A stretch of DNA of 64,000 bases, taken from the NCBI RefSeq assembly GCF_026343945.1, contig NZ_JAPKNJ010000001.1, positions 1,364,001 through 1,428,000 on the forward strand. The letters run 5' to 3'. This document shows, piece after piece, positions 19,521-32,688 of this stretch (its first letter is position 1; the number at the start of each line of letters is the position of its first letter). This stretch comes from Kaistia algarum. Lineage in GTDB: Bacteria > Pseudomonadota > Alphaproteobacteria > Rhizobiales > Kaistiaceae. The notes below the pieces were generated by a model that was given only the letters and a program-made list of their open reading frames with translations, did not search any database and was not told the origin of the DNA. A program made the translations under genes and the position numbers.

Positions 19521-20119
19521 TGTCCGCAGCTATCGCAACCTCGGGCCTTGCCGAGCCCGCTCTGGACGGCCAGGCGAATTTCCGCAGCCTTATGAATGCC
19601 CTGGCGCGCCCCGGCACCATCGAGCCCTTGTCGCTGCGTCTTGCCGCGCCGGCGCCGCTGACCGCGGGTCTTGCTGCATTGGCGCTGTCGCTCGCCGATC
19701 ACGAGGCGCCGCTCTGGCTCGACGCGGCGCTGGCCAGCTCCAATGAGGTCGTCACCTATCTGCGCTTCCACACCGGCGCCCGGATCGTCGCCGATCCGCA
19801 GCTTTCCGCCTTCGCGCTCGTCGCCGATTTCGCCGCCATGCCCCCTTTGGCGACATTTTCTCTCGGCAGCGACGACTATCCCGACCGGTCGACCACGATC
19901 CTCGCCGCGGTTCAGGATCTGGGGACCGGCGTCCGCCTTGAACTCACGGGACCGGGCATATTGGGCGAGGCGCACGTCGCTGTATCGCCCTGGCGCGATG
20001 GCCTGACCGGCGAACTCGCCGATAATCGCTCGCTCTTCCCCTGCGGCGTCGATCTGGTGCTGGTCGCGGCCGATGCCGTCGCCGCCCTGCCCCGCACTAC
20101 TCACGTCCGGGAGGTCTGA
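19520..20119 (+). CDS. phnH: C-P lyase core subunit PhnH
   Basis: A 199-residue protein with the typical PhnH beginning (NFRSLMNALARPGTIEPL), the LALSLADHEAPLWLD block, and the end PCGVDLVLVAADAVAALPRTT. PhnH is a pseudo-PLP-transferase-fold subunit of the PhnGHIJ complex. Its ATG shares a base with the phnG stop, and phnI begins 1 bp after its own stop, so the core subunits are made in a coupled series. Confidence 0.95.
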   Translation: MSAAIATSGLAEPALDGQANFRSLMNALARPGTIEPLSLRLAAPAPLTAGLAALALSLADHEAPLWLDAALASSNEVVTYLRFHTGARIVADPQLSAFALVADFAAMPPLATFSLGSDDYPDRSTTILAAVQDLGTGVRLELTGPGILGEAHVAVSPWRDGLTGELADNRSLFPCGVDLVLVAADAVAALPRTTHVREV

Positions 20120-20120
20120 C

Positions 20121-21227
20121 ATGTATGTCGCGGTCAAAGGCGGCGAGGCAGCGATCGACAACGCCCATGCGCTCCTCGCCCGGAAGCGGCGCGGGCCGGC
20201 GACGATCCCCGAAATCGCGCCTTCGCAGATCGAGGCGCAGCTCACGCTCGCCGTAGACCGCGTCATGGCGGAGAGTTCGCTTTATGACCCGAAGCTGGCG
20301 GCGCTGGCGATCAAGCAGGCGCGCGGCGATTTGATCGAGGCGATCTTCCTGACGCGGGCGTTTCGCACCACGCTGCCCCGCTTCGGCTATTCCGAGCCGC
20401 TCGATACGGCTGCCATGGAAATCGAGCGCCGTATCTCGGCCACCTTCAAGGATTTGCCCGGCGGGCAGGTGCTGGGCCCGACCTTCGACTATACGCATCG
20501 CTTGATCGACTTCCTGCTCGAGGCCGGCGCTGAGCTACCGCCCGAGATCGAGGCCCACACGCAGCCCGAGCCGTCGCCGCGGGTGACCGACCTTCTGGAT
20601 GGCGAGGGGCTGATCGAGCAGGAGAGCCGCGACGACGATGCCGAAATTGGCGACCTCACGCGCGCCCCGCTCGACTTCCCGGCGGATCGCGATCTTCGCC
20701 TGCAGGCGCTGGCGCGCGGCGACGAGGGCTTCCTGCTGGCGCTCGGTTATTCGACCCAGCGCGGCTATGGCCGCACCCATCCCTTCGTCGGCGAAATAAG
20801 GTTCGGCGAGGTGATGGCCGAGTTCGTCCCCGAGGAGCTCGGCTTCGCCGTGCCGCTCGGGCCGGTCGCGGTGACCGAGTGCCAGATGGTCAACCAATTC
20901 CATGGCTCGGCAGAGCTGCCGCCGCAATTCACCCGCGGCTATGGCCTCGTCTTCGGCCAGAGCGAGCGGAAGGCGATGTCGATGTCGCTCGTTGACCGGG
21001 CCCTGCGCACCCGCGAATTCGGCGAAGATGTCGTGGCGCCGGCGCAGGACGAGGAATTCGTGCTGTCGCATTGCGACAATGTCCAGGCGACCGGCTTCGT
21101 CGAGCATCTGAAGCTGCCGCATTACGTGGATTTCCAGGCTGAACTCGGCCTCGTTCGGCAGATGCGCGCCGACTACGCGAGCCGGCGGCAGGAAGCTGAG
21201 GGCGAGTTGAAGGAGGCGGCGGAATGA
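20121..21227 (+). CDS. phnI: C-P lyase core subunit PhnI
   Basis: A 368-residue PhnI protein beginning MYVAVKGGEAAIDNAH, as in family members, and ending with the VEHLKLPHYVDFQAELGLVR block. PhnI has the nucleosidase activity that forms the ribose-triphosphate-phosphonate with PhnGHL. The start at 20121 is supported by GGGAGG 7 bases upstream; the open frame before it overlaps phnH. Length is normal (E. coli about 354). It overlaps phnJ by 4 bp. Confidence 0.96.
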   Translation: MYVAVKGGEAAIDNAHALLARKRRGPATIPEIAPSQIEAQLTLAVDRVMAESSLYDPKLAALAIKQARGDLIEAIFLTRAFRTTLPRFGYSEPLDTAAMEIERRISATFKDLPGGQVLGPTFDYTHRLIDFLLEAGAELPPEIEAHTQPEPSPRVTDLLDGEGLIEQESRDDDAEIGDLTRAPLDFPADRDLRLQALARGDEGFLLALGYSTQRGYGRTHPFVGEIRFGEVMAEFVPEELGFAVPLGPVAVTECQMVNQFHGSAELPPQFTRGYGLVFGQSERKAMSMSLVDRALRTREFGEDVVAPAQDEEFVLSHCDNVQATGFVEHLKLPHYVDFQAELGLVRQMRADYASRRQEAEGELKEAAE

Positions 21228-22186
21228 GCGCGGCAGCAACCGGATCCACCGGCTACAATTTCGCCTATCTCGACGAACAGACGAAGCGGATGATCCGCCG
21301 TGCGATCCTGAAGGCGATTGCCATTCCCGGCTATCAGGTTCCCTTCGCCAGCCGCGAAATGCCGATGCCCTATGGCTGGGGCACGGGGGGCGTGCAGGTG
21401 ACGGCAGCGATCCTCGGGCCGCAGGACGTGCTGAAGGTGATCGACCAGGGCTCGGACGACACGACCAACGCCGTCTCGATCCGCAAGTTCTTTGCCAAGA
21501 CAGCCGGCGTCGAGACGACGACGAAGACCGCCGAGGCGACGATCATCCAGACCCGCCACCGCATTCCGGAACACAAGCTCACCAGCGGTCAGGTCCTCGT
21601 CTACCAAGTGCCGATCCCCGAGCCGCTGCGCTTCCTGGAGCCGCGCGAGACCGAAACGCGCAAGCTGCATGCGCTCGCCGACTACGGCCTCATGCATGTG
21701 AAGCTCTATGAGGACATTTCGCGGCACGGGCATATCGCGACAACCTATGATTATCCGGTCGAAATCGCCGGGCGCTATGTGATGAACCCGTCGCCGATTC
21801 CGAAATTCGACAATCCCAAGATGGATTTCTGCGAGGCGCTGCAGCTCTTCGGCGCCGGCCGCGAAAAGCGCATCTATGCGGTCCCGCCGCACACCCGGGT
21901 CCGCAGCCTCGATTTCGAGGATCATCCCTTCGCGGTGCAGCGCTTCGACAAGCCCTGCGCGCTCTGCGCGGCAACGGGCGTCTATCTCGACGAGGTCGTG
22001 CTCGACGATGAAGGCGGGCGGATGTTCGTCTGCTCGGACAGCGACTATTGCGAGGAACGGCGGGCGCAAGGGCATGTCGGCGAGATGCTGGGGACCAACA
22101 GCGGCGATCCCCCTTCCTTCACCCTCTCCCGCGGCGCGGGAGAGGGGGCACCGCCGTCATCCTCCGTCGACGGGAGCGGATCATGA
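21224..22186 (+). CDS. phnJ: radical SAM C-P lyase PhnJ with repeat-derived C-terminal tail
   Basis: A 320-residue catalytic C-P lyase. The cysteines C245, C248, C270 and C276 (CALC, then CSDSDYC) have exactly the spacing of E. coli C241, C244, C266 and C272, three of which hold the 4Fe-4S cluster while the last forms the thiyl radical. GWGTGGVQ and the PPHTRV block are also kept. It is longer than E. coli PhnJ (281). Residues from about D295 to the end are encoded by a palindromic repeat (22106-22182) and look like an added tail. The stop overlaps the GNAT start as ATGA. Confidence 0.96.
   Translation: MSAAATGSTGYNFAYLDEQTKRMIRRAILKAIAIPGYQVPFASREMPMPYGWGTGGVQVTAAILGPQDVLKVIDQGSDDTTNAVSIRKFFAKTAGVETTTKTAEATIIQTRHRIPEHKLTSGQVLVYQVPIPEPLRFLEPRETETRKLHALADYGLMHVKLYEDISRHGHIATTYDYPVEIAGRYVMNPSPIPKFDNPKMDFCEALQLFGAGREKRIYAVPPHTRVRSLDFEDHPFAVQRFDKPCALCAATGVYLDEVVLDDEGGRMFVCSDSDYCEERRAQGHVGEMLGTNSGDPPSFTLSRGAGEGAPPSSSVDGSGS
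22106..22182 (+). repeat. in-frame palindromic repeat, copy 1 (3' end of phnJ)
   Basis: A 77-bp unit whose core CCCTCTCCCGC-GGC-GCGGGAGAGGG (22122-22146) is a perfect 11-bp stem with a 3-base loop. The first 41 bp match copy 2 (22627-22667) at 35 positions. Both copies are read in the same frame (PxSFxLxRxAGEG) and both end just before an ATGA junction with the next gene. The core also occurs in the intergenic repeat at 30425-30540. Confidence 0.85.
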
Positions 22187-22707
22187 TGGATCTCGTGCTC
22201 CGCCCTATCACCGAGGCCGATCTCCCCGCCCTGCTCGCGCTCTATGCCCAGCCGAGCTTCAACAAGGGCCACGTGATTTCCCTTGATGCGGCGAAGGCGA
22301 TCTTCGCCCGCTTCGCCGCCTATCCCGACTACGCCATCTATTTCGCGGAAGCGGACGGGGAGGTGCTCGGCACCTTCGCGCTGATGATCATCGACAATAT
22401 TGCCCATTGGGGCACGCCGACGGCCATGATCGAGAATGTCGTGGTGCGCGAGGATCGCCAGGGCGGCGGCATCGGCCGCGCCATGATGAACGCCGCCTGC
22501 GCCCTGGCCCAGACCAAGGGCGCCTACAAGGTGGCGCTGTCTTCGAACCTCGCCAACGAGCGCGGCCATGCCTTCTATGAAGGCTTGGGCTTTGAGAAGC
22601 ACGGCTTCAGCTTCCGGCTGGAGCTGGCTCCCTCTTCCTTCTCCCTCTGCCGCGAGGCGGGAGAGGGAAGAACTGCCGTGCCTTTCGTAGAGGAAAGCGC
22701 ATCATGA
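22183..22707 (+). CDS. GNAT N-acetyltransferase in the C-P lyase operon (PhnO-like role)
   Basis: A 174-residue GNAT protein beginning DLVLRPITEADLPALLALY, with the acetyl-CoA loop VVREDRQGGGIGRAMMNAA (QxxGxG type) and a C-terminal ERGHAFYEGLGFEKHGFSF. It lies between phnJ and phnK, overlapping both by 4 bp. By analogy with PhnO it may N-acetylate aminoalkylphosphonates, but it is not a close PhnO relative by eye. The last 26 residues (from A149) are encoded by a second copy of the palindromic repeat that also ends phnJ, and are probably a tail outside the fold. Confidence 0.82.
   Translation: MMDLVLRPITEADLPALLALYAQPSFNKGHVISLDAAKAIFARFAAYPDYAIYFAEADGEVLGTFALMIIDNIAHWGTPTAMIENVVVREDRQGGGIGRAMMNAACALAQTKGAYKVALSSNLANERGHAFYEGLGFEKHGFSFRLELAPSSFSLCREAGEGRTAVPFVEESAS
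22627..22703 (+). repeat. in-frame palindromic repeat, copy 2 (3' end of the GNAT gene)
   Basis: A 77-bp unit of the same length, frame and position relative to the following ATGA junction as copy 1. Its stem pairs TCCCTCT (22642-22648) with AGAGGGA (22662-22668) around GCCGC/GCGGG. The encoded peptide SSFSLCREAGEG parallels PSFTLSRGAGEG of the PhnJ tail. Confidence 0.85.
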
Positions 22708-23486
22708 CCCAGAACGATCTCCCCCTTCTCTCTGCCCGCGATCTGACCAAACATTATGGTCCCAGGATCGGCTGCGCCGAGGTCTCGTTCGATATCTATG
22801 AGGGCGAGGTGCTGGCGGTGGTCGGCGAGTCCGGTTCGGGCAAGTCGACGCTCCTCTCGTTGCTCTCGACCGAACTGCCGCCAACTTCCGGCAGTGTCCA
22901 CTACAGCATGCGCGACGGCGTCAGCCGCAATCTGTTCGACCTGTCGGAGGCCGAGCGGCGCTTCCTGCTGCGGACCGATTGGGGTTTCGTGCGGCAGGAT
23001 GCGCGCGACGGCCTGCGCATGGGCGTCTCGGCCGGCGGCAATGTCGGCGAGCGGCTGATGGCGGTGGGCGCGCGCCATTATGGCAAGATCCGCGATACGG
23101 CGTCGGACTGGCTCGGCCGCGTCGAGATCGATCCGACCCGCATCGACGATCTGCCGAAGAGCTTCTCCGGCGGCATGCGCCAGCGCCTGCAGATCGCCCG
23201 CAATCTGGTGACCCATCCGCGCCTCGTCTTCATGGACGAGCCGACTTCCGGCCTCGACGTCTCGGTACAGGCGCGTCTGCTCGATCTCATCCGCGGCCTC
23301 GTCACCGAACTCGGTCTCGCGGTGATCATCGTCACGCACGACCTCGCCGTGGCACGGCTGCTCTCCCACCGCATCATGGTGATGCGGCACGGCCACGTCA
23401 TCGAGACCGGCCTCACCGACCAGGTGCTCGACGATCCGCGCGAGGCCTATACGCAGCTTCTCGTCTCCTCCGTGCTGGCGGCATGA
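22704..23486 (+). CDS. phnK: C-P lyase ABC-type ATPase PhnK
   Basis: A 260-residue ABC protein with Walker A GESGSGKST, the PhnK-specific block WGFVRQDARDGLRMGVSAGGN, signature FSGGMRQRLQIAR and Walker B LVFMDEP. PhnK binds the PhnGHIJ core and drives its opening rather than membrane transport. It starts by a 4-bp overlap with the GNAT gene and overlaps phnL by 4 bp. Length is as in E. coli (252) within a few residues. Confidence 0.96.
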   Translation: MTQNDLPLLSARDLTKHYGPRIGCAEVSFDIYEGEVLAVVGESGSGKSTLLSLLSTELPPTSGSVHYSMRDGVSRNLFDLSEAERRFLLRTDWGFVRQDARDGLRMGVSAGGNVGERLMAVGARHYGKIRDTASDWLGRVEIDPTRIDDLPKSFSGGMRQRLQIARNLVTHPRLVFMDEPTSGLDVSVQARLLDLIRGLVTELGLAVIIVTHDLAVARLLSHRIMVMRHGHVIETGLTDQVLDDPREAYTQLLVSSVLAA

Positions 23487-24196
23487 TCATGACCGACAAC
23501 CTCGTCACTCTCGGCGGCGTCTCCAAGGCGTTCACGCTGCATCTGCGGGACGGACTGCGGATCGGCGTCGTCGACAATGTCAGCTTCGCGGCATCGCCCG
23601 GCGAGTGCGTCGTGCTCGGCGGGCCGTCCGGAGCCGGCAAATCATCGATCCTGAAGATGATCTACGGCAATTACCGCTGCGACGTCGGTCGCATCTTCGT
23701 TCGCGACGGCGAGGAAGCGGTTGACGTGGCCAGCGCCGAGCCGCGGCGCATCCTGAAGCTGCGCGCCTCGGTCATGGGCTATGTCAGCCAGTTCCTGCGC
23801 GTCATCCCGCGAGTCTCGACACTCGACATCGTCGCCGGAGCCGCCATGTCGGACGGGATCGGCGAGTGCGAGGCCTGGGCCCGCGCTGAGCGGCTGCTGA
23901 CGCTGCTGAACGTTCCCGAACGCCTCTGGGCGCTGCCGCCGGCCACCTTTTCCGGCGGCGAGCAGCAGCGCGTCAATATTGCACGCGGCCTTGCCTCCGA
24001 ACGGCCGATACTGCTGCTCGACGAGCCGACTGCCTCGCTGGACGCGGCCAACCGCGCCGTGGTGGTGCGCCTGATCGAAGAAAAGAAGCGCGCCGGCGCG
24101 GCGATTATCGGCATCTTCCACGACGAGGATGTGCGCGACCGCGTCGCCGACCGCATCGTGGATGTGACGCGCTTCGCCACGGAAAAGGCGGCGTAG
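23483..24196 (+). CDS. phnL: C-P lyase ABC-type ATPase PhnL
   Basis: A 237-residue ABC protein with Walker A GGPSGAGKSS, the VMGYVSQFLRVIPRVSTLDIVA block typical of PhnL, signature FSGGEQQRVNIAR, Walker B ILLLDEP and a terminal GIFHDEDVR. Two start codons are close: ATG 23483 (coupled to the phnK stop) and ATG 23489. PhnL acts with PhnGHI in forming the phosphonate-ribose-triphosphate adduct. After its stop come 221 bp holding a mosaic repeat before phnM. Confidence 0.96.
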   Translation: MIMTDNLVTLGGVSKAFTLHLRDGLRIGVVDNVSFAASPGECVVLGGPSGAGKSSILKMIYGNYRCDVGRIFVRDGEEAVDVASAEPRRILKLRASVMGYVSQFLRVIPRVSTLDIVAGAAMSDGIGECEAWARAERLLTLLNVPERLWALPPATFSGGEQQRVNIARGLASERPILLLDEPTASLDAANRAVVVRLIEEKKRAGAAIIGIFHDEDVRDRVADRIVDVTRFATEKAA

Positions 24197-24223
24197 TGAG
24201 CGCGGGAGGGTGACGCTCTCCTT

Positions 24224-24366
24224 GAGCCTCCCCCGAGGGGAGGCCGAAAACGCCTCGACGTTTTCGGGAGGGGGTCATGGTCTCGCCATGGCTGTGAGAT
24301 TAGAAGAGCAGACGCGACCCCTCCCCAAAACCGCTTCGCGGTTTTGACCCTCCCTCAAGGGGAGGG
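24224..24366. repeat. mosaic palindromic repeat (type C) between phnL and phnM
   Basis: Two hairpin-forming arms in opposite orientation frame a 40-bp spacer: CCTCCCCCGAGGGGAGG plus a GAAAACG/CGTTTTC stem on the left, and CCCCTCCCCAAAACCGC/GCGGTTTTGACCCTCCC plus CAAGGGGAGGG on the right. The right arm is nearly the same as that at 38089-38140. No gene is seen in the gap. Confidence 0.75.
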
Positions 24367-24417
24367 TTCAAGGGGAGAGTCCCGTCGGCACACGCTGAAC
24401 TGGAAAGACCTGATTCG

Positions 24418-25569
24418 ATGATCGACCCGCGCGACTATGTCCTCACCAACGCCACGCTCGTCCTGCCCGACCGAGTCGTCCCGGCGGGATGGGTTGCCGT
24501 TTCCGACGGCGTGATCGCCGAGATCGGCGAGGGCAAGGCGCCCGAGAGCGGCATCGATCTGGAGGACGACCATCTGATTCCCGGCCTGGTCGAGTTGCAT
24601 ACCGACCATCTCGAGAGCCATTTCGCGCCGCGCCCGCATGTGCGCTGGCATCCGCTCGCCTCGGTCATGGCTTATGACGCGCAGATCGCGGCGGCCGGCA
24701 TCACCACCGTGTTCGATTCGCTGCGCGCCGGCTCCGATGCCGATTCGACCTCCGTTGGCGAGGATCTGGTCAAACTCGCCGAAGCGATCGACGAGGCCAG
24801 GGCCTCCGGTCACCTGCGCGTCGATCATCGCACGCATCTGCGCTGCGAGATCGCCTGCGAGGACGTGATCGAGCAGGTCGAGGATTTCTCCCACCGCTTC
24901 CCGATCCACATGATGTCGCTGATGGACCACACGCCGGGCCAGCGCCAGTTCACCGACATGGCGACGTGGCGGCGCTTCTATATGCGGCGCAAGCCAATGA
25001 CCGAGGCCGAGGCCGATTTCTTCATCGCCCAGCGGCTCGAACTGCACGAGAAGAATGCGCGGCCGAACCGCGGCCGCCTGATCGAGATCGCCGGCGACGT
25101 CGGCGCGGTACTGGCAAGCCATGACGACGCGACCGCCGCCCATGCCGAAGAGGCCGTGACGAACGGCGTTTCGATCGGCGAATTCCCGACGACGCTGGAA
25201 GCGGCCGCGGCGCTGCATGCCGCCGGCATTGGCGTGATGATGGGCGGGCCGAATGTCGTGCGCGGCGGCTCGCATTCCGGCAACATCGCCGCCGAGGAAC
25301 TGGCTCGCGCGGGCGTGCTCGACATCCTCTCGTCCGACTATGTGCCGGCAAGCCTGCTGATGTCGGCCTTCGAGCTGCCGCAGCGCGTCCCGAACATCGA
25401 CCTTGCGAGCGCGATCCGCACCGTGACGTTGACGCCAGCCGAGGCAACCGGCCTTGGCGACCGCGGCGCCATCGAGCCCGGCCGTCGCGCCGATCTCGTG
25501 CGCGTCAACCTCGCCGGCTCGACGCCGATTGTACGTCATGTCTGGCGCCAAGGCCGCCGCGTCTCGTGA
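24418..25569 (+). CDS. phnM: ribose 1-methylphosphonate 5-triphosphate diphosphatase PhnM
   Basis: A 383-residue amidohydrolase-superfamily enzyme. The metal site is visible in ELHTDHLESHFAPRPHVRWHP, with the later DHRTHLRCE, SHDD and SSDYVP blocks of the family. It removes pyrophosphate from the triphosphate intermediate before the C-P lyase step. It lies 221 bp after phnL across a mosaic repeat, and 10 bp before phnN. Length agrees with E. coli PhnM (378). Confidence 0.96.
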   Translation: MIDPRDYVLTNATLVLPDRVVPAGWVAVSDGVIAEIGEGKAPESGIDLEDDHLIPGLVELHTDHLESHFAPRPHVRWHPLASVMAYDAQIAAAGITTVFDSLRAGSDADSTSVGEDLVKLAEAIDEARASGHLRVDHRTHLRCEIACEDVIEQVEDFSHRFPIHMMSLMDHTPGQRQFTDMATWRRFYMRRKPMTEAEADFFIAQRLELHEKNARPNRGRLIEIAGDVGAVLASHDDATAAHAEEAVTNGVSIGEFPTTLEAAAALHAAGIGVMMGGPNVVRGGSHSGNIAAEELARAGVLDILSSDYVPASLLMSAFELPQRVPNIDLASAIRTVTLTPAEATGLGDRGAIEPGRRADLVRVNLAGSTPIVRHVWRQGRRVS

Positions 25570-25579
25570 GGAGATCGTT

Positions 25580-26140
25580 ATGGCCGGAGCCTTCGTCGCC
25601 ATCGTCGGGCCCAGCGGGGCCGGCAAGGACACGCTGATCGCCCATGCCCGCACGGCGCTGGCTGCCGATGCGGATTTCATCTTCGTTCGGCGGCTGGTGA
25701 CGCGCGCCGCCAACGCCTTCGAGGATCACGACACGATCGACCCGGCGAGTTTCGAGGCGGGCCACGCGGCCGGGAGCTTCGCGCTCTCCTGGCGTGCGCA
25801 TGGCCTCGGTTATGCCCTTCCGGCCGAGACACTGGCGGCGGTACAGGCAGGCTCGGTCGCAGTGTGCAACCTTTCTCGAAGCGTGCTCGCCGAGGCGCGG
25901 CATCGCTTTCCTCGCGTCGCCGTGGTCCTCGTCACGGCGCCGCCCGAGGTGCTGGCCGTGCGGCTGACGGCGCGCGGGCGCGAAAGCGCCGTGGCCGTGG
26001 CCGAGCGCCTCCGTCGCGAGGCGGCCTGCGACGAGGTGCCCAGCCCCGACCTAGTGGTCATGAACGACCGACCGATCGAAATTACGGGCGGCGAGTTGCT
26101 GGACTTCCTGAGCCGGCTGAAGGAAACGCAGCCGGCCTGA
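25580..26140 (+). CDS. phnN: ribose 1,5-bisphosphokinase PhnN
   Basis: A 186-residue P-loop kinase with GPSGAGKDTL at the N-terminus, RRLVTRAAN, and the guanylate-kinase-like arrangement of PhnN (FALSWRAHGLGYALP). It phosphorylates ribose 1,5-bisphosphate to PRPP, the last step of methylphosphonate salvage. The start at 25580 is set by AGGAG 6-7 bases upstream; the open frame before it overlaps phnM. PhnP, which would produce its substrate, is not in the window. Confidence 0.94.
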   Translation: MAGAFVAIVGPSGAGKDTLIAHARTALAADADFIFVRRLVTRAANAFEDHDTIDPASFEAGHAAGSFALSWRAHGLGYALPAETLAAVQAGSVAVCNLSRSVLAEARHRFPRVAVVLVTAPPEVLAVRLTARGRESAVAVAERLRREAACDEVPSPDLVVMNDRPIEITGGELLDFLSRLKETQPA

Positions 26141-26155
26141 TTGGCAGAGCCTCGC

Positions 26156-27304
26156 TCAGACGTCCTTGAAGCTCTTCTCGAACAGGGCGTTCAGGTCCTC
26201 GATGAGGCTAGTGCCGTCCTCGCCCGACTTCAGCGCCAGGTTGATGCGCTGCGAGGCTTCCTCCTGGAACGGCATGTAGCCGTCATGACGCGGGCGGACG
26301 AAAGCCTCTTCCAGAGTCGCGCGCGTGCCGCGGTAGAAGTCGTGGGTGCGGGCGTTGACGGCGTCGTCGTTCCACGCCGCGGCATGACCTGGCTGGCCGC
26401 CATTCGCTGCATAGGCACCGCGCTGGACCTCGCCGCTTGCCAGCCAATAGGCGAAGTCGATCGCCGCGTCCTTGTGCTTCGAATGCGCCGAGACGGCGAT
26501 GCCGGTGCCGCCAAGCGCCGAGCCACGCGGCGCCGTACCCGCCTCGATCACCGGCATATCGGTGAAGGCGAGTCGATGCGGGCGGAAGCCGTCCGTCGCA
26601 TAGGAGACATAGCCATAGAGCAGCGGCGCGAGGGCAAGCGTCGAGCCCGCCTCCGCCATGCGCTCGAACACTTCGATCGGATCGATGTCATAGGCGACGT
26701 CGGGAACCAGCCGCGCGATTTTGTGCATCCACTGATAGGCGCGGATGCCAGCGTCGCGGCCGATCAGCTCCGGCCCCAGTACGTTGCAGGGCGTGCCGAG
26801 ATGGGCGGCGAAGGTGAAGAATGCCATCAGCGAATGCGGTGGGCGCAACGGCAGCAGCACATGGCCCTTCTCGGCCTGCGCGATGACCTCATCCCAGGTC
26901 GTGGGCGGCGACGCGATCAGGTCCGGCCGATAGGCCATGACCGGGCTCGCGGCGTCGATCGGGAACGCCCATTGCTTGCCGCGCCAGAAATAGCTCGGAT
27001 AGGACGGCCCGACGGAGCCGGCGATGAGGCCGTCACGCTCATCCTCGCGCCCCGGCACATCGAGCGGCGCCAGGCAGCCTTCATGGGTGACCTGACCGAC
27101 GTGGGGGTGGTCGATGACGATGAGGTCATAGGCCTTGGCCAGTTCGTCGACCGGAAAGCTCTCGAAATCCTGCAGAGAGCGCTTGTTCCATTCGACGGCG
27201 ACGCCTTTCTCGCGCGCATAGATTTCGGCGCAGGCGACGACCGGGTCATAGCCGCGCGGATGGCTCCAGGTCATGCCCTTGAGCGTGATCGGTGGGGTGG
27301 TCAT
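26156..27304 (-). CDS. extracellular-solute-binding-like protein lacking a signal peptide
   Basis: A 382-residue SBP_bac_1-type protein. Sugar-binding landmarks are visible: DLIVIDHPHVGQV, a YPSYFWRGKQWAFPIDAASPVMAYRPDL block and the terminal NALFEKSF. It starts MTTPPITLKGMTWSHPRGYDP with no hydrophobic segment, so by sequence it stays in the cytoplasm unless the true start is missed. No in-frame upstream signal is apparent in the 52-bp gap to the CaiB gene. Related signal-less binding proteins occur beside CaiB/BaiF and MaoC genes in some proteobacteria, as I recall, with unknown role. Confidence 0.8.
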   Translation of the reverse strand: MTTPPITLKGMTWSHPRGYDPVVACAEIYAREKGVAVEWNKRSLQDFESFPVDELAKAYDLIVIDHPHVGQVTHEGCLAPLDVPGREDERDGLIAGSVGPSYPSYFWRGKQWAFPIDAASPVMAYRPDLIASPPTTWDEVIAQAEKGHVLLPLRPPHSLMAFFTFAAHLGTPCNVLGPELIGRDAGIRAYQWMHKIARLVPDVAYDIDPIEVFERMAEAGSTLALAPLLYGYVSYATDGFRPHRLAFTDMPVIEAGTAPRGSALGGTGIAVSAHSKHKDAAIDFAYWLASGEVQRGAYAANGGQPGHAAAWNDDAVNARTHDFYRGTRATLEEAFVRPRHDGYMPFQEEASQRINLALKSGEDGTSLIEDLNALFEKSFKDV

Positions 27305-27356
27305 CGGCTCTGTCTCTTCAGGTCAAGGGAAGGGCGAGGTGGTTTCAGCCCATCAT

Positions 27357-28514
27357 TCATAGGCCGAACTCCGCCCGGATGGCCTCGGTGTTCTCGCCGA
27401 TGCGCGGCGCGGCGACCGTGCTCACCGGACGGATGCCATCGACGCGGATCGGCGAGCGGGTCGTGCGGATCGAGACATTGTCGGCGCGCTCCACCGTCTG
27501 CAGCATGTCGAGGGCGGTGAAACCCGGATTGACCAGCAGTTCCGGCCAGTCGAGCACCTTGGCGCACCATATGTCGGCCGGCTCCAGGATCGACAGCCAA
27601 TGCTCGGTCGTCTGGGTCGAGAGACGCGCCGCGATCAAGTGCTTGATCTCGTCGCGCGCCGTGAACCAACTCTTCGGATCGTCGCGCCAGGGGCTGAGTT
27701 CCGGCATGCCGAGAAGGTCGGCCAGGCGCGGGATCGGCGTCATCGCGATGGCGAGATAGCCGTCCTGCGTCGGATAGATGCCATAGGGCGCCGAGAGATA
27801 GGCATGGGCGTTGCGGAAGGCCGAGCGGCGGGGCTGGCGGTTGCCGTCATTCATATAGGTGGTGAGCACCTCGAACTGGAAATCGACCAGCGCTTCCATC
27901 AGGCTGGTCTCGACATGGCTGCCCTTGCCGGAAATGCCGCGACGGACCAGCGCCGCCAGCACGCCCTGGCAGAGCGCCGCGCCGGCCAGCATGTCGGCAA
28001 TGGCGAGGCCGAAGGGCACCGGCCCCTGGTGCTCGTCGCCGTTCAGCCAGGTGACGCCAGAGCGAGCCTGCGCCAAGAGGTCCTGTCCTGGCCGCGACAC
28101 CCACGGCCCCTCGTCGCCATAGCCGGTGATCGAGCCATAGACGACATCCGGATTGATCGCCTTCACCGCCTCATAGCCAAGGCCGAGGCGATCGATGACG
28201 CCGGGGCGGAAATTCTGCATGACGACGTCGGCTCGGGCGAGCAGCTTCTTCAGGCTCTCAAGCTCGGCCGGGTTCTTCATGTCGACGGCGAAGCTCTCCT
28301 TGCCGCGATTGATCGCGTGGAAAAGCGTCGAATCGCCGCCGATCTCGGTATCGGTCAGATAGAGCCGTCGGCAGAGATCGCCGCCATCCGGCCGCTCTAC
28401 CTTGATGACGCGCGCACCGAGATCCATGAGGCGCAACGCGCAATAGGGCCCTGACAGAAATTGCGAGAGATCGACGACGACCAGCCCGCTGAGCGGCATT
28501 TCGGAATTCGACAT
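27357..28514 (-). CDS. CaiB/BaiF family (class III) CoA-transferase
   Basis: A 385-residue protein with the class III CoA-transferase N-terminus (GLVVVDLSQFLSGPYCALRLMDLGARVIKVERPDGGD), the ADVVMQNFRPGVIDRLGLGYE block whose NFRPG loop contacts CoA, and GKGSHVETSLMEALVDF. The catalytic aspartate of the family should be in the middle of the protein, around KGSHVETSL. It would move CoA to an organic acid. It sits between the signal-less binding protein and a MaoC hydratase, and all three may work on the same acid. The substrate is not known. Confidence 0.9.
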   Translation of the reverse strand: MSNSEMPLSGLVVVDLSQFLSGPYCALRLMDLGARVIKVERPDGGDLCRRLYLTDTEIGGDSTLFHAINRGKESFAVDMKNPAELESLKKLLARADVVMQNFRPGVIDRLGLGYEAVKAINPDVVYGSITGYGDEGPWVSRPGQDLLAQARSGVTWLNGDEHQGPVPFGLAIADMLAGAALCQGVLAALVRRGISGKGSHVETSLMEALVDFQFEVLTTYMNDGNRQPRRSAFRNAHAYLSAPYGIYPTQDGYLAIAMTPIPRLADLLGMPELSPWRDDPKSWFTARDEIKHLIAARLSTQTTEHWLSILEPADIWCAKVLDWPELLVNPGFTALDMLQTVERADNVSIRTTRSPIRVDGIRPVSTVAAPRIGENTEAIRAEFGL

Positions 28515-28526
28515 CAGTGAGGCCTG

Positions 28527-29084
28527 TTACTTCTCTGTATCGCCGGCAAAGGCCGAGGCGTCGCGATATTTGACCGTCTGGAGATGCTCGCAATAGAGCA
28601 CCAGCTCGCCCTCGCCCTTGAAGATCTCATAGGAGGCGCGGATGAGGCCCATCGCCTTGTATTTCGGCCGTTTTTCCAGATTGGTGCGGATCGCGTAGAT
28701 CGTGTCGCCGATGAAGACCGGCTTGATGAAGCGCAGCCGGTCATAGCCATAGGAGAAGGCATTGACGCAATTGGTCGCAACGAGGCCGAGCCCGGCGGAG
28801 AAGACGAAGGCGCCAGCGACCAGGCGGCGGCCGAAGACGCCCTCGCTCGCGGCGAACATCTGGTCCTGCACATAGGGGTGGATGTCGGTGACCAGCAGGT
28901 TGAAGAGATGCGAATCGCCTTCGGCCATAGTGCGGCGCAGCGAGCGGATCTTCTGGCCGACGGGCCAGTCCTCATAGAACCAGTTCTCGGCATTCCAGAC
29001 CGGCAGGTCGGAATGTTCCTTCGGCATGTCCTTGGGATGCGTCGACGATACGCCCACCGTCGGCGCGCCCGGCTCAGTCGTCAT
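28527..29084 (-). CDS. MaoC-like hot-dog hydratase/dehydratase
   Basis: A 185-residue hot-dog-fold protein. The hydratase core ([64 protein letters not shown]) is like that of mesaconyl-CoA-type and other MaoC enzymes. I use Met at 29084, with GGAGG 5 bases before, rather than 29099. It lies 12 bp before the CaiB gene, so the two are co-transcribed. Its cousin at 38171-38629 is on the other arm of the cluster; the YGYD[RK][LV]RF block is shared. Confidence 0.85.
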
Positions 29085-29187
29085 GGTTTCCTCCCGCATG
29101 CCGACATTTCTTGTTCTTCATATATCAATCGACAACTCATCGGCAAATCAATGGGAAAGTGTGGTGCCGCAGAAAGTACGCTCTTTC

Positions 29188-29316
29188 CTTCACCTCCCCA
29201 TGAGGGGGAGGTCGACGGCCGAAGGCCGGCGGGAGAGGGTTTAGGGAACCATCCGGAGATGGCCGTAAACCCGCCCCCGCGATTCGCGCCGACCTCTCCC
29301 TCGAGCAGAGGTGAAG
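29188..29316. repeat. mosaic palindromic repeat (type A), copy 1
   Basis: A 129-bp element bounded by CTTCACCTC and its inverse GAGGTGAAG, with nested inverted pairs (AGGTCG/CGACCT, GGGTTT/AAACC) inside. Copy 2 (34147-34274) has the same ends, order and near-same length. It lies between the MaoC gene and the Gfo/Idh/MocA gene; the other bases of that 246-bp gap show no gene. Confidence 0.8.
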
Positions 29317-29330
29317 AAAATCAAGCCCTC

Positions 29331-30407
29331 CTAAGGTGCCGTCCTCACGGCCGTCGCCGGCGCCGCCGCCGATTCGAATGCGGCCTCGACCATCGCCATG
29401 GTGTGCCAGGCATCCTCCACCGACGTTACCAGCGTCTCGTCCTCGCCAGTCGCATAACGCTGGAGGTTCGACATCACGCCGATAAAGGCATGCGGGAACC
29501 AGCCGCCCGAGAGCTTGACGCTCTTCCATTTGGCGTCGGGGCCGCGGTCGGCGGTGATCCAGAGTTCGTCCGGCTCGCCCTTGGGATAGTTGAGCAGCAG
29601 ACCGAGTTTGACGAGGGCGGCGCCGTCGCGGCCCTCGAAACGGAAGCTCGCATCCTGGAAGCGGCGCCCGAAATCATGATTGTGGTTGATCGACAAAGTG
29701 CAGCGCCGGTCGCCGCCGAAATCGAGCAGCGCCGAGGTGCGCGTCTGCGCCAGATCGGTCGAGGGGTGGCCGAGCGTGCGGGCATGGATTCCGGTCGGAT
29801 TGCCGAGGAAGGCGCGGATCAGGTCGAGATAGTGGATCGAATGGACCGCGATCTCGACGCGCGGCATGCCCTTCAGGAACGGGAAGAGGTGCCAGGGCGT
29901 CACGAGGTTCAAATGCACCTCGACATCGACCAGCGGCCCGAGCAGCCCGCGACCGACCGCATCGGCAAGCGCCAGCATCATCGGCGAGAAGCGGAGCTGG
30001 AAGTTCACCGCCGCCTTGAAGCCGCGTGTGCGGGCCAGCGCCAGAATGGCGCTCGCCTCGGCCAGGTCGCGGCCCATCGGCTTCTGGATCAGGACAGCCG
30101 CGCCTTTCGGGAGGCGCTTCAGCACGTCGAGATGGGCGGCGGGCGGCGTTGCGAGATCGAAGACCGCATCGCGTACCGCGACCGTTTCGTCGACCGTGCG
30201 AAAGGCGGGCACGCTCCAGCGCTCGGCCAGCGCCCGCGCCTTGACCACATCGCGGTCATAGATGCCAGCCACGGGAAACCCAGCCATCGCATAGGCCGGC
30301 AGATGCGCGTCGCCGACGATCCCACCCGCGCCAATAATGACGATCGGCCGGGGCGCCGAGGGCCGCGGCCAGGACTGCGAGAGGGAGGAAGGTTCGAAAT
30401 CGGCCAT
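29331..30407 (-). CDS. Gfo/Idh/MocA-family NAD(P)-dependent oxidoreductase
   Basis: A 358-residue protein with an N-terminal Rossmann fold (IVIIGAGGIVGDAHLPAY) and the catalytic-lysine motif as QKPMG in place of the usual EKP. A C-terminal substrate domain follows, with HSIHYLDLIRAFLG. Such enzymes oxidise or reduce sugars and their derivatives. With the mutarotase and lactonase 165 and 515 bp upstream it may perform the first oxidation of a deoxysugar, but other family members act on inositols and aminosugars. A type B repeat lies between it and the mutarotase gene. Confidence 0.85.
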   Translation of the reverse strand: MADFEPSSLSQSWPRPSAPRPIVIIGAGGIVGDAHLPAYAMAGFPVAGIYDRDVVKARALAERWSVPAFRTVDETVAVRDAVFDLATPPAAHLDVLKRLPKGAAVLIQKPMGRDLAEASAILALARTRGFKAAVNFQLRFSPMMLALADAVGRGLLGPLVDVEVHLNLVTPWHLFPFLKGMPRVEIAVHSIHYLDLIRAFLGNPTGIHARTLGHPSTDLAQTRTSALLDFGGDRRCTLSINHNHDFGRRFQDASFRFEGRDGAALVKLGLLLNYPKGEPDELWITADRGPDAKWKSVKLSGGWFPHAFIGVMSNLQRYATGEDETLVTSVEDAWHTMAMVEAAFESAAAPATAVRTAP

Positions 30408-30424
30408 AAGAGTCTCGCTGCGCT

Positions 30425-30540
30425 CTCCCCTCTCCCGTTTGCGGGAGAGGGTTGGGGTGAGGGTCTTGCTGGGGTGTCGGCGACGAAGGGAAGGAGAAAG
30501 TCTCTCACCCTAGCCCTCTCCCGGAAGGCAGGAGAGGGGA
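30425..30540. repeat. palindromic repeat (type B) between Gfo and mutarotase genes
   Basis: Two hairpins frame the element: CCCTCTCCCG/CGGGAGAGGG at the left, followed by TTGGGGTGAGGG, and CTCACCCTAGCCCTCTCCCG/GGAGAGGGG at the right in opposite order. The left core is the same sequence that is read as protein in the phnJ and GNAT tails. Confidence 0.75.
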
Positions 30541-30572
30541 TCAAGTCGTGCGCGCCGAAAGTCGCTTCCCCC

Positions 30573-30902
30573 TCAATCGGTATGAAATACCTCTTCCATC
30601 TCCGCCCACCACTCGCCCTCTTTTCGACTTCCGAGCGGGGCCTGCAGCGGCATGCAGATCTTCCACCAATCCTGCGTCACCGGATCGGCGGCCATCAGCA
30701 GGCTGTCGGCGGCGTAGTCCGCGCCGTGATATTCGAAAGTGGCGAAGAGCAGGTTCTCCGGTTCGCGGAGATAGATCGAATAGTTCTTGATGTTGCAGAG
30801 CGCGATGCGCTCGAGGACGCCCGGCCAGACGGCGGCGTGCAGGCGCTTATATTCCGCGATCGCCTCGGGCTTGATGCCGAGGATGAATCCCATTCGCTGC
30901 AT
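30573..30902 (-). CDS. rhaM: L-rhamnose mutarotase
   Basis: A 109-residue protein that matches the RhaM/YiiL fold throughout: MGFILGIKPEAIAEYKRLHAAVWPGVLE, IKNYSIYLREPENLLFATFEYHG, and WWKICMPLQAPL. It interconverts alpha and beta anomers of L-rhamnose and related 6-deoxy sugars such as L-fucose. GGGAGG lies about 6 bases before the ATG. It is encoded between the amidohydrolase and the Gfo oxidoreductase and is the best clue that this cluster handles a deoxysugar. Confidence 0.93.
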   Translation of the reverse strand: MQRMGFILGIKPEAIAEYKRLHAAVWPGVLERIALCNIKNYSIYLREPENLLFATFEYHGADYAADSLLMAADPVTQDWWKICMPLQAPLGSRKEGEWWAEMEEVFHTD

Positions 30903-30922
30903 TTTCTGCCTCCCTTTTGGCG

Positions 30923-31756
30923 CTAAACCGCCAGCCTATAGATCCGTTCTGCATTGGCGTGCAGCAATTTTGCCTTCTCCGGCTCGCTGGCGCCGGCGAT
31001 GATTTCATGCGTCGCCTCGACCCAGCGTGTCAGATTGGCCGTCAGCGTGCAGACCGGAAAGTCAGACCCCCAGACGACGCGATCCCAGCCAAAGGCTTCG
31101 ATGGTGTGCTCTACGAAAGGGCGCAGATCCGCAACTTTCCAGTGCTCCGGATCGCCATAGGCGATGACGCCGGAGATCTTGGCCGCGACATTGGGCAGTT
31201 CGGCGAGCGCGGTCATGTCGGCGCGCCAGGGATCGAGCGCTTGGTCCTTGACGTTGGGCACGCCGCAATGATCGAGGATGAACTGGACATCGGGCGCGGC
31301 GCGCGCGATTTCGACCGCGATCGGAAGCTGCCGCGCCAGCACGCAGAGGTCGAAGGTCAGCCCAAGCGGCGCCAGGCGACGGATGTTGTCCTGGAAGATC
31401 GGACGGCGACCGAGTTCGTCCGGCGATTCGTGCAGGATGCGGCGAAGCCCCTTCACCCTGGGATTGGCCGCATAACGCTCGGCGAGTTCCGGGAAATCGG
31501 CGTGTTCCGGCCGGCAGGCGGCAATGGCGCCGACAACGCCCTCGCCCAGCGACGTGACGAAGGCGGTCTCCGCCTCCATATCCGGCTCGGCGACGTCCAC
31601 CTCCATATGCAGCATCGCTTCGATACCGAGCGGCTTCGCTTCGGCAAGGTAGTCCGCAAGCGTAAAGTTGCGGTTGAGCGACGGGGCGCCCGCGAGCCAG
31701 GGGTAGCGAAAGCGTTCCTGGTAGACGAGGTGGAGATGGGTGTCGACGATCCGCAC
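30923..31756 (-). CDS. amidohydrolase-family lactonase (L-fuconolactonase-like)
   Basis: A 277-residue TIM-barrel hydrolase. Landmarks are the DTHLHL metal motif at the start, LDHCGVPNV in the middle, and WGSDFPVC with the late metal aspartate. It fits the amidohydrolase-2 subfamily that includes L-fucono-1,5-lactonase. It starts with GTG, supported by GGGAGG 6 bases upstream. In an oxidative sugar pathway it would open the lactone made by a dehydrogenase. It lies 20 bp from the mutarotase gene. Decarboxylase relatives share the fold, so the substrate is inferred. Confidence 0.85.
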   Translation of the reverse strand: MRIVDTHLHLVYQERFRYPWLAGAPSLNRNFTLADYLAEAKPLGIEAMLHMEVDVAEPDMEAETAFVTSLGEGVVGAIAACRPEHADFPELAERYAANPRVKGLRRILHESPDELGRRPIFQDNIRRLAPLGLTFDLCVLARQLPIAVEIARAAPDVQFILDHCGVPNVKDQALDPWRADMTALAELPNVAAKISGVIAYGDPEHWKVADLRPFVEHTIEAFGWDRVVWGSDFPVCTLTANLTRWVEATHEIIAGASEPEKAKLLHANAERIYRLAV

Positions 31757-31848
31757 GCGGTCCTCCCTGCCGGGCTTCAGGCCGGCTCGTTTTCATTCAT
31801 GGGTGATGATATCATTCACGACGATGGACTGCCGAGCAAGCGGCAGCC

Positions 31849-32688
31849 TCAACCCTCGCTGTCCCCGCCGCGGCCGAGCGCCGCCGACAGATCGCGCACG
31901 GTCTCCAGCAGGATGTCGAGTACCGCATCCCGGCCCGGAACATTCGGCCGGTCGATACGCGAGAGGAACGGGCAGGTGAGCGCGGCGATCGCCGTGTCGT
32001 TGGGGCCGAGGATCGGCGCGGAGAGATTGTAGACCGCCTCCGACTGGACCGACGGCATCACCTCATAGCCCTGGCGGCGGATTTCGACCAACCGTCTGTC
32101 GAGTCCCTCGGGACGGTGCGCGTCCTCGGCCTGGTCCTCGCGCTCCGACTCCATCATCGCCCGCTCCTGCGAGGTCGCGAAGGCGAGAAGGACATGGCCG
32201 GAGCCGGTATTGTAGAGGCTGACGCGAGCGCCGACGCGAATCGAATAGCTCCAATAGGATGGCGCGTCCATCTGGCCGACAACGACGACGCGGCCACGGT
32301 CATAGACCGCGAGATGGCAGGCCTGCTCGGCCCGCTTGCAGAATTCACGCATCACCGGCAGCGCCTGGCTCACCAGCCTTCGCACCGGCGGATGCTGGTG
32401 AGCGAGCGAGAACAGGCGGAGCGTCAATTCGTAGCGATCACCCAGGATGCGGGCGACATAGGAGCGCCGCACAAGGCGGTCGAGCATACGGTAAATCTCG
32501 TTCGGAGATCGATTGAGCGCCTTGGCGATCTCCGCCTGCGTCATGCTCTCATCGGTCGAGGCCAGCAGCTCAAGGATGTCCAGGCCCTTGTCGAGCGCGG
32601 GCGCGCGGTAGCGGTCATTGGCGTCGTCCAGCATTTCCTGTCCCCATTCCGCCCACGGTCCAAGCCTCTTTTGAGCCAAGTTAGACAT
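31849..32688 (-). CDS. IclR-family transcriptional regulator
   Basis: A 279-residue IclR regulator: the winged helix is at residues about 30-90 (ALDKGLDILELLAS, MTQAEIAKALNRSPNEIYRMLDRLVRRSYV) and the effector domain follows (LAVYDRGRVVVVGQMDAP, TGSGHVLLAFAT, EGLDRRLVEIRRQGYEV). The start at Met 32688 is preferred to Met 32730, which would overlap the likely -10 of the divergent transporter. It sits at the centre of the divergent catabolic cluster and should control both arms. The inducer is presumably the sugar or an acid derived from it. Confidence 0.9.
   Translation of the reverse strand: MSNLAQKRLGPWAEWGQEMLDDANDRYRAPALDKGLDILELLASTDESMTQAEIAKALNRSPNEIYRMLDRLVRRSYVARILGDRYELTLRLFSLAHQHPPVRRLVSQALPVMREFCKRAEQACHLAVYDRGRVVVVGQMDAPSYWSYSIRVGARVSLYNTGSGHVLLAFATSQERAMMESEREDQAEDAHRPEGLDRRLVEIRRQGYEVMPSVQSEAVYNLSAPILGPNDTAIAALTCPFLSRIDRPNVPGRDAVLDILLETVRDLSAALGRGGDSEG

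What the first reader, a model, noticed from the sequence alone, without database searches (positions are those of the whole stretch)
22106..22703. Palindromic repeats read as protein: the tails of PhnJ and the GNAT enzyme
Two 77-bp repeats with perfect hairpin cores end two adjacent genes of the C-P lyase operon. Both are read in the same frame (PSFTLSRGAGEG and SSFSLCREAGEG) and both stop at an ATGA junction with the next gene. The same core occurs outside genes at 30425-30540. The parsimonious reading is that a mobile palindromic element inserted twice in coding DNA without breaking translational coupling, as Rickettsia RPE elements do. Added tails on a catalytic radical SAM subunit may affect complex assembly.
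Basis: partly seen in the sequence, partly recalled or inferred. Interest (0 to 1): 0.8.

Follow-up and report, generated by a model that had tools for sequence, protein, structure and literature searches.

The report
Mobile hairpin repeats become protein tails
In a Kaistia bacterium, short hairpin repeats found mostly between genes also lie inside the last codons of two adjacent phosphonate-degradation genes, where they encode extra tails; comparison with related species says they were likely inserted several times, and likely kept because the overlap joining neighbouring genes stayed intact.

Summary
Hairpin cores at 22122-22146 (perfect) and 22643-22667 (one mismatch) lie in frame in the last ~26 codons of phnJ and of the next gene (GNAT). 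Both genes keep the 4-base ATGA overlap with the gene behind. The shared repeat is about 39 nt, not 77. The core belongs to a REP/REPIN family: a covariance model built without the two phn copies finds at least 78 cores in the genome (73 intergenic, 5 genic) and recovers both.

In 13 Kaistia genomes, REP-like insertions sit at 9 of 39 phnI/J, phnJ/GNAT and GNAT/phnK junctions. All 9 are open in frame and keep a 4-base overlap; at least 5 look like separate events. In some species PhnJ carries them behind its start codon. The same genome has two in-frame REP insertions inside cobN, so this is not one accident.

No REP-associated transposase was found (0 of 14 genomes). In-frame REPs are already in print (PMC3733652; Rickettsia RPEs), so this is a new variant of a known kind. 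Nothing shows that the tails have a function.

The parts
21224..22186 (+). phnJ (C-P lyase radical SAM subunit, 320 aa); residues 295-320 are the inferred added tail
   Evidence: ORF; PF06007 2.4e-149 over residues 10-281; E. coli PhnJ 4xb6_D aligns to residues 9-279
22122..22146 (+). REP hairpin core in phnJ, perfect arms 11 + loop 3 + 11; repeat copy about 22108-22146
   Evidence: REP model R1 (built without it) E = 7.5e-7 on the minus strand, 3.5e-5 on the plus strand
22183..22186 (+). ATGA: stop of phnJ and start of the GNAT gene
22183..22707 (+). GNAT acetyltransferase gene (174 aa); fold ends near residue 147, tail 148-174
   Evidence: PF00583 3.1e-17; model pLDDT 54-69 in the tail
22643..22667 (+). 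REP hairpin core in the GNAT gene, one mismatch; repeat copy about 22629-22667
   Evidence: REP model R1 E = 0.0077, close to the cut-off of 0.01
22704..22707 (+). ATGA: stop of GNAT and start of the phnK-like gene
22704..23486 (+). phnK-like ABC ATPase
   Evidence: PF00005 2e-30; phnK by position in the operon
20073..21227 (+). phnI (the start may be further in), ending in ATGA with phnJ at 21224
   Evidence: PF05861 7.6e-163
30411..30555 (.). intergenic REPIN of the same family (two inverted REP units, 30411-30476 plus and 30489-30555 minus)
   Evidence: R1 E = 7.6e-19 (this copy was in the model's training set) and 6.4e-11

Best explanation
Two REP-type palindromic elements lie in frame in the last codons of phnJ and of the GNAT gene, and they were most likely inserted there as mobile repeats and likely kept because each insertion left the reading frame and the ATGA overlap to the next gene intact. 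Shown: the element is a multi-copy family, mostly intergenic, often in inverted pairs. Shown: in 13 Kaistia genomes, REP-like insertions of several sequence types sit at three overlapping junctions of this operon, in species whose relatives lack them, and every one is open in frame. Shown: between the conserved part of each protein and the ATGA there is no other in-frame stop, so a ribosome that makes PhnJ must read the element unless it shifts frame. Inferred: these junctions have no spacer, so a repeat that lands there must be coded. Copies that shift the frame would move the stop away from the next start and weaken translational coupling, so they are lost. Copies that keep the frame add a floppy tail after a finished fold and are tolerated. 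Inferred: the tails are near neutral. Unknown: the enzyme that moves the repeats, since no REP-associated transposase was found.
For: Family: 39 perfect-arm sites in the genome against 3 for the reversed control pattern. Model R1, built from 19 copies without the phn ones, finds 78 distinct cores, 73 intergenic (56 co-directional, 13 convergent, 1 divergent, 3 unassigned), 5 genic; 57 of 78 have an inverted partner within 150 bp. Presence/absence: GNAT of G002 carries a REP tail that its sister G009 and G003, G011, G012 lack. The GNAT-core tree of 46 rows needs 8 changes (gains or losses) of the REP label; starred branches force at least 5. Junctions: 39 of 39 in 13 genomes overlap (38 by 4 nt if GTG and TTG starts are allowed, 1 by 1 nt). 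The 9 with REP-like insertions all overlap by 4 nt: 8 ATGA, 1 TTGA. Contrast: in family member G018 the phnJ-phnK gap is open and holds four REP-like hairpins as intergenic DNA. Tails are outside the folds: E. coli PhnJ aligns to 9-279; pLDDT below 50 for 294-320 and 54-69 for the GNAT tail. The same genome has in-frame REPs inside cobN.
Against: No mobilising enzyme: PF01797 and NF047646 not found in 14 of 14 Kaistia genomes, so mobility rests on presence/absence only. The phnJ tail of the nearest relative (G004) has a different, decayed core; whether it is the same insertion or a second one is open (its 3' flank alone is matched by 215 of 1000 shuffles). In G005 and G013 my gene caller chose later start codons, which would leave the REP pair untranslated between phnI and phnJ; the overlapping ATGA start is my reading. 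Hairpins with 10-bp arms and one mismatch also occur in gene bodies; I picked the REP-like ones by their letters. No proteomics. The PhnJ model is weak overall (mean pLDDT 61.8). The in-frame argument (about 1 in 3 per event, 5 to 6 events) rests on few events.
Confidence: 0.82

Rival explanations
1. The hairpins are kept as RNA elements that tune the operon (mRNA stability or ribosome passage between cistrons) and the coded tail is a by-product.
For: Both local RNAs fold better than most shuffles (z = -2.1 and -2.9; 5 and 3 of 200 shuffles fold as well); REPs in mRNAs are credited with such roles in the abstract of PMC3733652.
Against: At the phnJ end of the nearest relative the hairpin is decayed (z = -0.4). 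11 of 13 Kaistia have no REP insertion at phnJ/GNAT and 9 of 13 none at GNAT/phnK. Copy 2 in the window has a mismatch; ribosomes translating the tail would melt it.
Confidence: 0.1
2. One 77-bp junction segment was duplicated from the end of phnJ to the end of GNAT (or the reverse), rather than two insertions.
For: 76% identity over 79 bp between the two places; 19 of 36 identities in the last 36 nt, the highest of 13 same-genome values.
Against: Outside the 39-nt element the likeness lies within the range between phnJ and GNAT ends of different genomes (up to 24 of 36); the family has 76 other cores; G002 and G010 have REPs at the GNAT end alone.
Confidence: 0.05
3. Chance GC-rich palindromes in coding DNA.
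For: High G+C genome; other 10-bp hairpins with one mismatch occur in gene bodies; the GNAT copy scores only E = 0.0077.
Against: 0 of 100 shuffles give the perfect pattern; a model trained on other copies finds the phnJ site at E = 7.5e-7; the two copies share 39 nt at 87%; both sites coincide with length differences from relatives.
Confidence: 0.02

Closest known systems
REPs inside ORFs, GTAG and CGTC superfamilies (PMC3733652; sections 6 and 15 and passages read)
   Same: Short palindromes, mainly intergenic between co-directional or convergent genes, some wholly inside ORFs and read in frame; [quoted passage not shown] in Xanthomonas recB different REPs sit at about the same site
   Different: No GTAG or CGTC tag seen in the consensus (the paper also allows TGTC and CCTC variants; here CCTC occurs only inside the paired stem); 11-bp stem against 8-9 for CGTC; no REP tyrosine transposase found in the genus; hits at overlapping start-stop junctions with different REP types at the same junction in related species
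Rickettsia palindromic elements (RPE) and Wolbachia WPE (PMC3767692, passages read)
   Same: Palindromic repeats inserted in existing ORFs without breaking the frame, often in solvent-exposed parts; orthologues hit at the same locus
   Different: RPEs are 100-150 bp; the phn copies are about 39 nt single hairpins; another genus. [quoted passage not shown]
REPINs (PMC3116915, search listing and abstract start only)
   Same: Two inverted REPs with a short spacer: 57 of 78 cores are paired; the G004 GNAT tail and the G013 PhnJ leader hold a pair of hairpins
   Different: No RAYT gene found; the window's two genic copies are unpaired

Membership tests
REP (generic) | Short (20-40 bp) palindrome repeated in the genome, mainly intergenic | tested here: met
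   78 cores, 73 intergenic; a lower bound, as 150 of 2582 first-look candidates were scored
REP (generic) | Sits between co-directional or convergent genes rather than divergent ones | tested here: met
   56 co-directional, 13 convergent, 1 divergent, 3 unassigned; no control for the genome's own share of such gaps
GTAG/CGTC REP superfamilies | GTAG or CGTC tag at one end | tested here: inconclusive
   Neither is seen in the consensus of 19 copies, but PMC3733652 section 6 allows TGTC and CCTC variants, and its figures were not seen
RAYT-driven REP/REPIN | REP-associated tyrosine transposase in the genome | tested here: not met
   PF01797 0 of 14 Kaistia (control genomes rang in 5 of 14), NF047646 0 of 14 (controls rang in 6 of 14, over the cut-off in 1)
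REPIN | Inverted pair of REPs | tested here: met
   For the family 57 of 78 cores; not for the two phn copies of the window, which are single
Rickettsia RPE | In-frame insertion in an existing ORF, relatives lacking it | tested here: met
Rickettsia RPE | Sequence kinship with RPE-1 to RPE-7 | not tested
   No RPE sequence was fetched
Mobile element | Observed movement or target-site duplication | not tested
   Only presence/absence between species was compared; target-site duplications were not searched for

The most novel reading that the evidence does not exclude
Kaistia has a living system of protein-decorating REPINs: repeats of several sequence families, moved by a not yet recognised enzyme that is not RAYT, land again and again at the same permissive points (C-P lyase gene junctions, PhnJ leader, two loops of CobN). 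Frame-keeping under translational coupling turns them into ever-changing coded tails and linkers of core metabolic complexes.
Probability: 0.3. Interest if true: 0.7.

Novelty: new variant of a known kind. Interest (0 to 1): 0.52.

Why it matters
It gives a bacterium outside Rickettsia and Wolbachia in which the conversion of palindromic repeats into protein can be followed at the same gene junctions across a dozen species, with relatives that lack the insert. It suggests that overlapping start-stop junctions, which leave no spacer, filter repeats into coding sequence. It also warns annotators that PSPLAGEG- or SLSRKAGEG-like tails and leaders in Hyphomicrobiales proteins may be repeat DNA, not domains.

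Tried and rejected
A 77-bp duplication between the two junctions: judged unlikely from the flank control. RAYT as the mover: PF01797 and NF047646 not found in the genus. A shared single insertion in phnJ of G000 and G004: left open. Rfam: no family in window 20000-32000 at gathering score. First GNAT tree used a rule that labelled P0008 and P0022 as REP-bearing, which by eye they are not; redone with hand labels after dropping five outgroup or long-branch rows (P0048, P0022, G016, P0029, P0030). The PhnJ model is weak (mean pLDDT 61.8), so I ran no fold search on it. Literature: searches gave 0 papers; others gave lists. No paper on translated REPs in Kaistia or in the phn operon was seen in those lists; the library holds few subscription journals.

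Full report
What is there. The window is G000:C1:1364001-1428000 of a 5.26 Mb genome. The genus is Kaistia: G004, a same-genus genome and the best match for both proteins, has the contig length of Kaistia hirudinis DSM 25966, found by name. phnI, phnJ, a GNAT gene and two ABC ATPase genes (phnK and phnL by position) follow each other. phnJ is 21224-22186, GNAT 22183-22707, phnK 22704-23486, each start overlapping the stop before it. Hairpin 1 (22122-22146) is perfect with 11-bp arms. Hairpin 2 (22643-22667) has one mismatch. The common stretch is 39 nt at 87%.

Beyond those 39 nt the likeness is not out of the ordinary. I compared the last 36 nt before the stop of phnJ and of GNAT in 13 Kaistia genomes. 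The window genome shows 19 identities, the highest of the 13 same-genome values, but phnJ of one genome against GNAT of another gives a mean of 14.3 and up to 24.

The repeat family. The pattern CCTCTCCC-N3..12-GGGAGAGG has 39 sites in the genome, against 3 for the reversed control. Of these 39, my gene calls put 37 between genes and 2 inside. Copies of the longer-stem type, once oriented, show the unit CCCTCTCCCGC-NN-GCGGGAGAGGG followed by TTGGGGTGAGGGYCTTGC. Of 20 such copies other than phnJ, 19 have that tail. The phnJ copy lacks it, and the GNAT sequence lacks it too.

A covariance model from 19 copies, phn copies left out, gave 115 matches in the genome at E 0.01 or better. Only 150 of 2582 first-look candidates were scored, so this is a lower bound, and E-values from the short calibration are rough. 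I removed 36 opposite-strand doubles by hand; 79 were entered and 78 cores remained: 73 intergenic, 5 genic. The gene calls are from a home-made caller trained on 21 ORFs of the window; a gene broken by a repeat would be counted as intergenic. The model scores the phnJ copy at E = 7.5e-7 and the GNAT copy at 0.0077. 57 of 78 cores have an inverted partner within 150 bp, the REPIN layout; the two phn copies are single.

The five genic cores are phnJ, GNAT, two in cobN (L155, 1247 aa open frame, TIGR02257) and one at the very end of a methylenetetrahydrofolate reductase gene. In cobN both lie in the middle of the protein, in frame. CobN was found in 14 of 14 Kaistia genomes; in 11 of them the alignment to the window's CobN is broken into pieces, at one or both of these places. 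At the second place I could read 12 genomes: six have 62-89 residues between the anchors, six have 24-31. For genomes other than the window's, that these are REPs rests on peptide look, not on DNA.

Comparison at the C-P lyase operon. GNAT of the nine Kaistia genomes without an insertion runs 12-22 residues past the fold. With an insertion: G000 (one hairpin), G004 (two), G002 (one), G010 (two). Among 39 GNAT proteins read from the database search (39 of 144 hits; 120 were listed), nine show such tails: P0002, P0003, P0004, P0005, P0010, P0011, P0018, P0019, P0034 (P0034 is the G010 protein). On a tree of the GNAT fold without tails (46 rows), the tail label needs 8 changes, gains or losses; well-supported branches force at least 5; bootstrap range 7-8. 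G002 is sister to G009, which has no tail.

PhnJ: the tail is present in G000 and, with a different and decayed core, in G004; whether these are one insertion is open. At the other end of PhnJ, G005 and G013 have leaders of 72 and 68 residues from the ATGA start, against 10-11 in the other genomes except G004. These leaders contain REP-like hairpins, two in G013 and one in G005, and the frame is open through them. My gene caller preferred later starts there, so translation of these leaders is the reading I favour, not shown. G004 has a probable decayed single copy at this place (24 residues).

In all, 9 of 39 junctions in 13 genomes carry REP-like insertions. Seven have a hairpin with arms of 10 or more and at most one mismatch; two, both in G004, are decayed. 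I picked REP-like hairpins by their letters; other hairpins of that strength occur in gene bodies. All 9 keep a 4-nt overlap, ATGA in 8 and TTGA in one. Among the other 30, one has a 1-nt overlap. The script took the start nearest to a 4-nt overlap, GTG and TTG included; in four phnJ/GNAT junctions (G002, G003, G009, G012) that is a GTG, with an ATG one step on as the alternative. Counting shared insertions once, there are at least five events (six with the decayed G004 leader). If frame were free, about one in three would fit each time. In G018, of the same family, the phnJ-phnK gap is not overlapping and holds four REP-like hairpins between the genes.

PhnJ of other genera. From 120 listed PhnJ relatives (of 7904) I read 27, chosen mostly for unusual length, so the share means nothing. 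Repeat-like C-tails appear in Kaistia-like P0121 and P0122, Bosea P0148, Ancylobacter P0149, P0177 and P0188, and in P0217; another repeat type in P0146 and P0152. Leaders with repeat-like peptides are in P0121, P0190 and P0235. These rest on peptide look alone.

How it most likely works. The ends of PhnJ and GNAT lie past the folds. The solved E. coli PhnJ aligns to residues 9-279. AlphaFold2 gives 294-320 of PhnJ below pLDDT 50 (a weak model overall, 61.8), and the GNAT tail 54-69 without secondary structure, in a model of mean 88.6. The iron-sulphur cysteines of E. coli PhnJ (241, 244, 266, 272; passages of PMC9947105) align with 245, 248, 270 and 276 here, before the tail; PhnK binds the central insertion domain, not the end. 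A frame-keeping insert is thus cheap, while a frame shift would move the stop away from the next start. A consensus hairpin can be read in all six frames without a stop; a consensus unit with its tail has a stop in one of six. That the filter is selection on coupling is inferred.

Known or new. REPs inside ORFs, about a tenth of the repeats at the coding end, are in print (PMC3733652, sections 6 and 15 and passages read), as are Rickettsia RPEs (PMC3767692, passages read). This family shows no GTAG or CGTC tag in its consensus, though variant tags leave that open, and no REP transposase was found (0 of 14 genomes by PF01797 and by NF047646). New here, as far as my searches show, are repeated hits at overlapping junctions of one operon and in CobN across one genus. 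I call it a new variant of a known kind.

Noticed in passing
L155:1-3741 minus (G000:C2:411801-415541): cobN carries two REP insertions in frame in the protein interior; at the second place six of twelve Kaistia genomes read have 62-89 residues and six have 24-31.
   Followed up: partly
L101:381-1175 plus (G000:C3 near 456948): A methylenetetrahydrofolate reductase gene ends 9 nt behind a REP hairpin of the short-stem type.
   Followed up: partly
L175 (reverse complement) and L176, phnI/phnJ junction: PhnJ leaders of 72 and 68 residues with REP-like hairpins directly after the ATGA start, against 10-11 residues in ten of the other eleven Kaistia genomes (24 in G004).
   Followed up: yes
window 24244-24267: Hairpin CCGAAAACGCC-TC-GACGTTTTCGG between the phnL- and phnM-position genes, perfect in G004 (L164:6631-6654); possibly an attenuator or terminator.
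   Followed up: no
L176:1052-1077, L175:1057-1082 (reverse complement) and six other phn loci: Inverted repeat TTGTCTA-N6-TAGACAA upstream of the first phn gene, beside a minus-strand gene that I take from memory to be a GntR-type regulator (not tested); looks like an operator.
   Followed up: no
window 29184-29320: Two 34-nt inverted arms, 79% complementary, between two minus-strand genes; looks like another repeat pair.
   Followed up: no
G000: 18 of the 39 perfect-arm sites have a shorter stem with a 3-nt loop, such as CCTCTCCCTCAGGGAGAGG; some of them share the GGGTGAGG tail, so they may be a subtype rather than a separate family.
   Followed up: no
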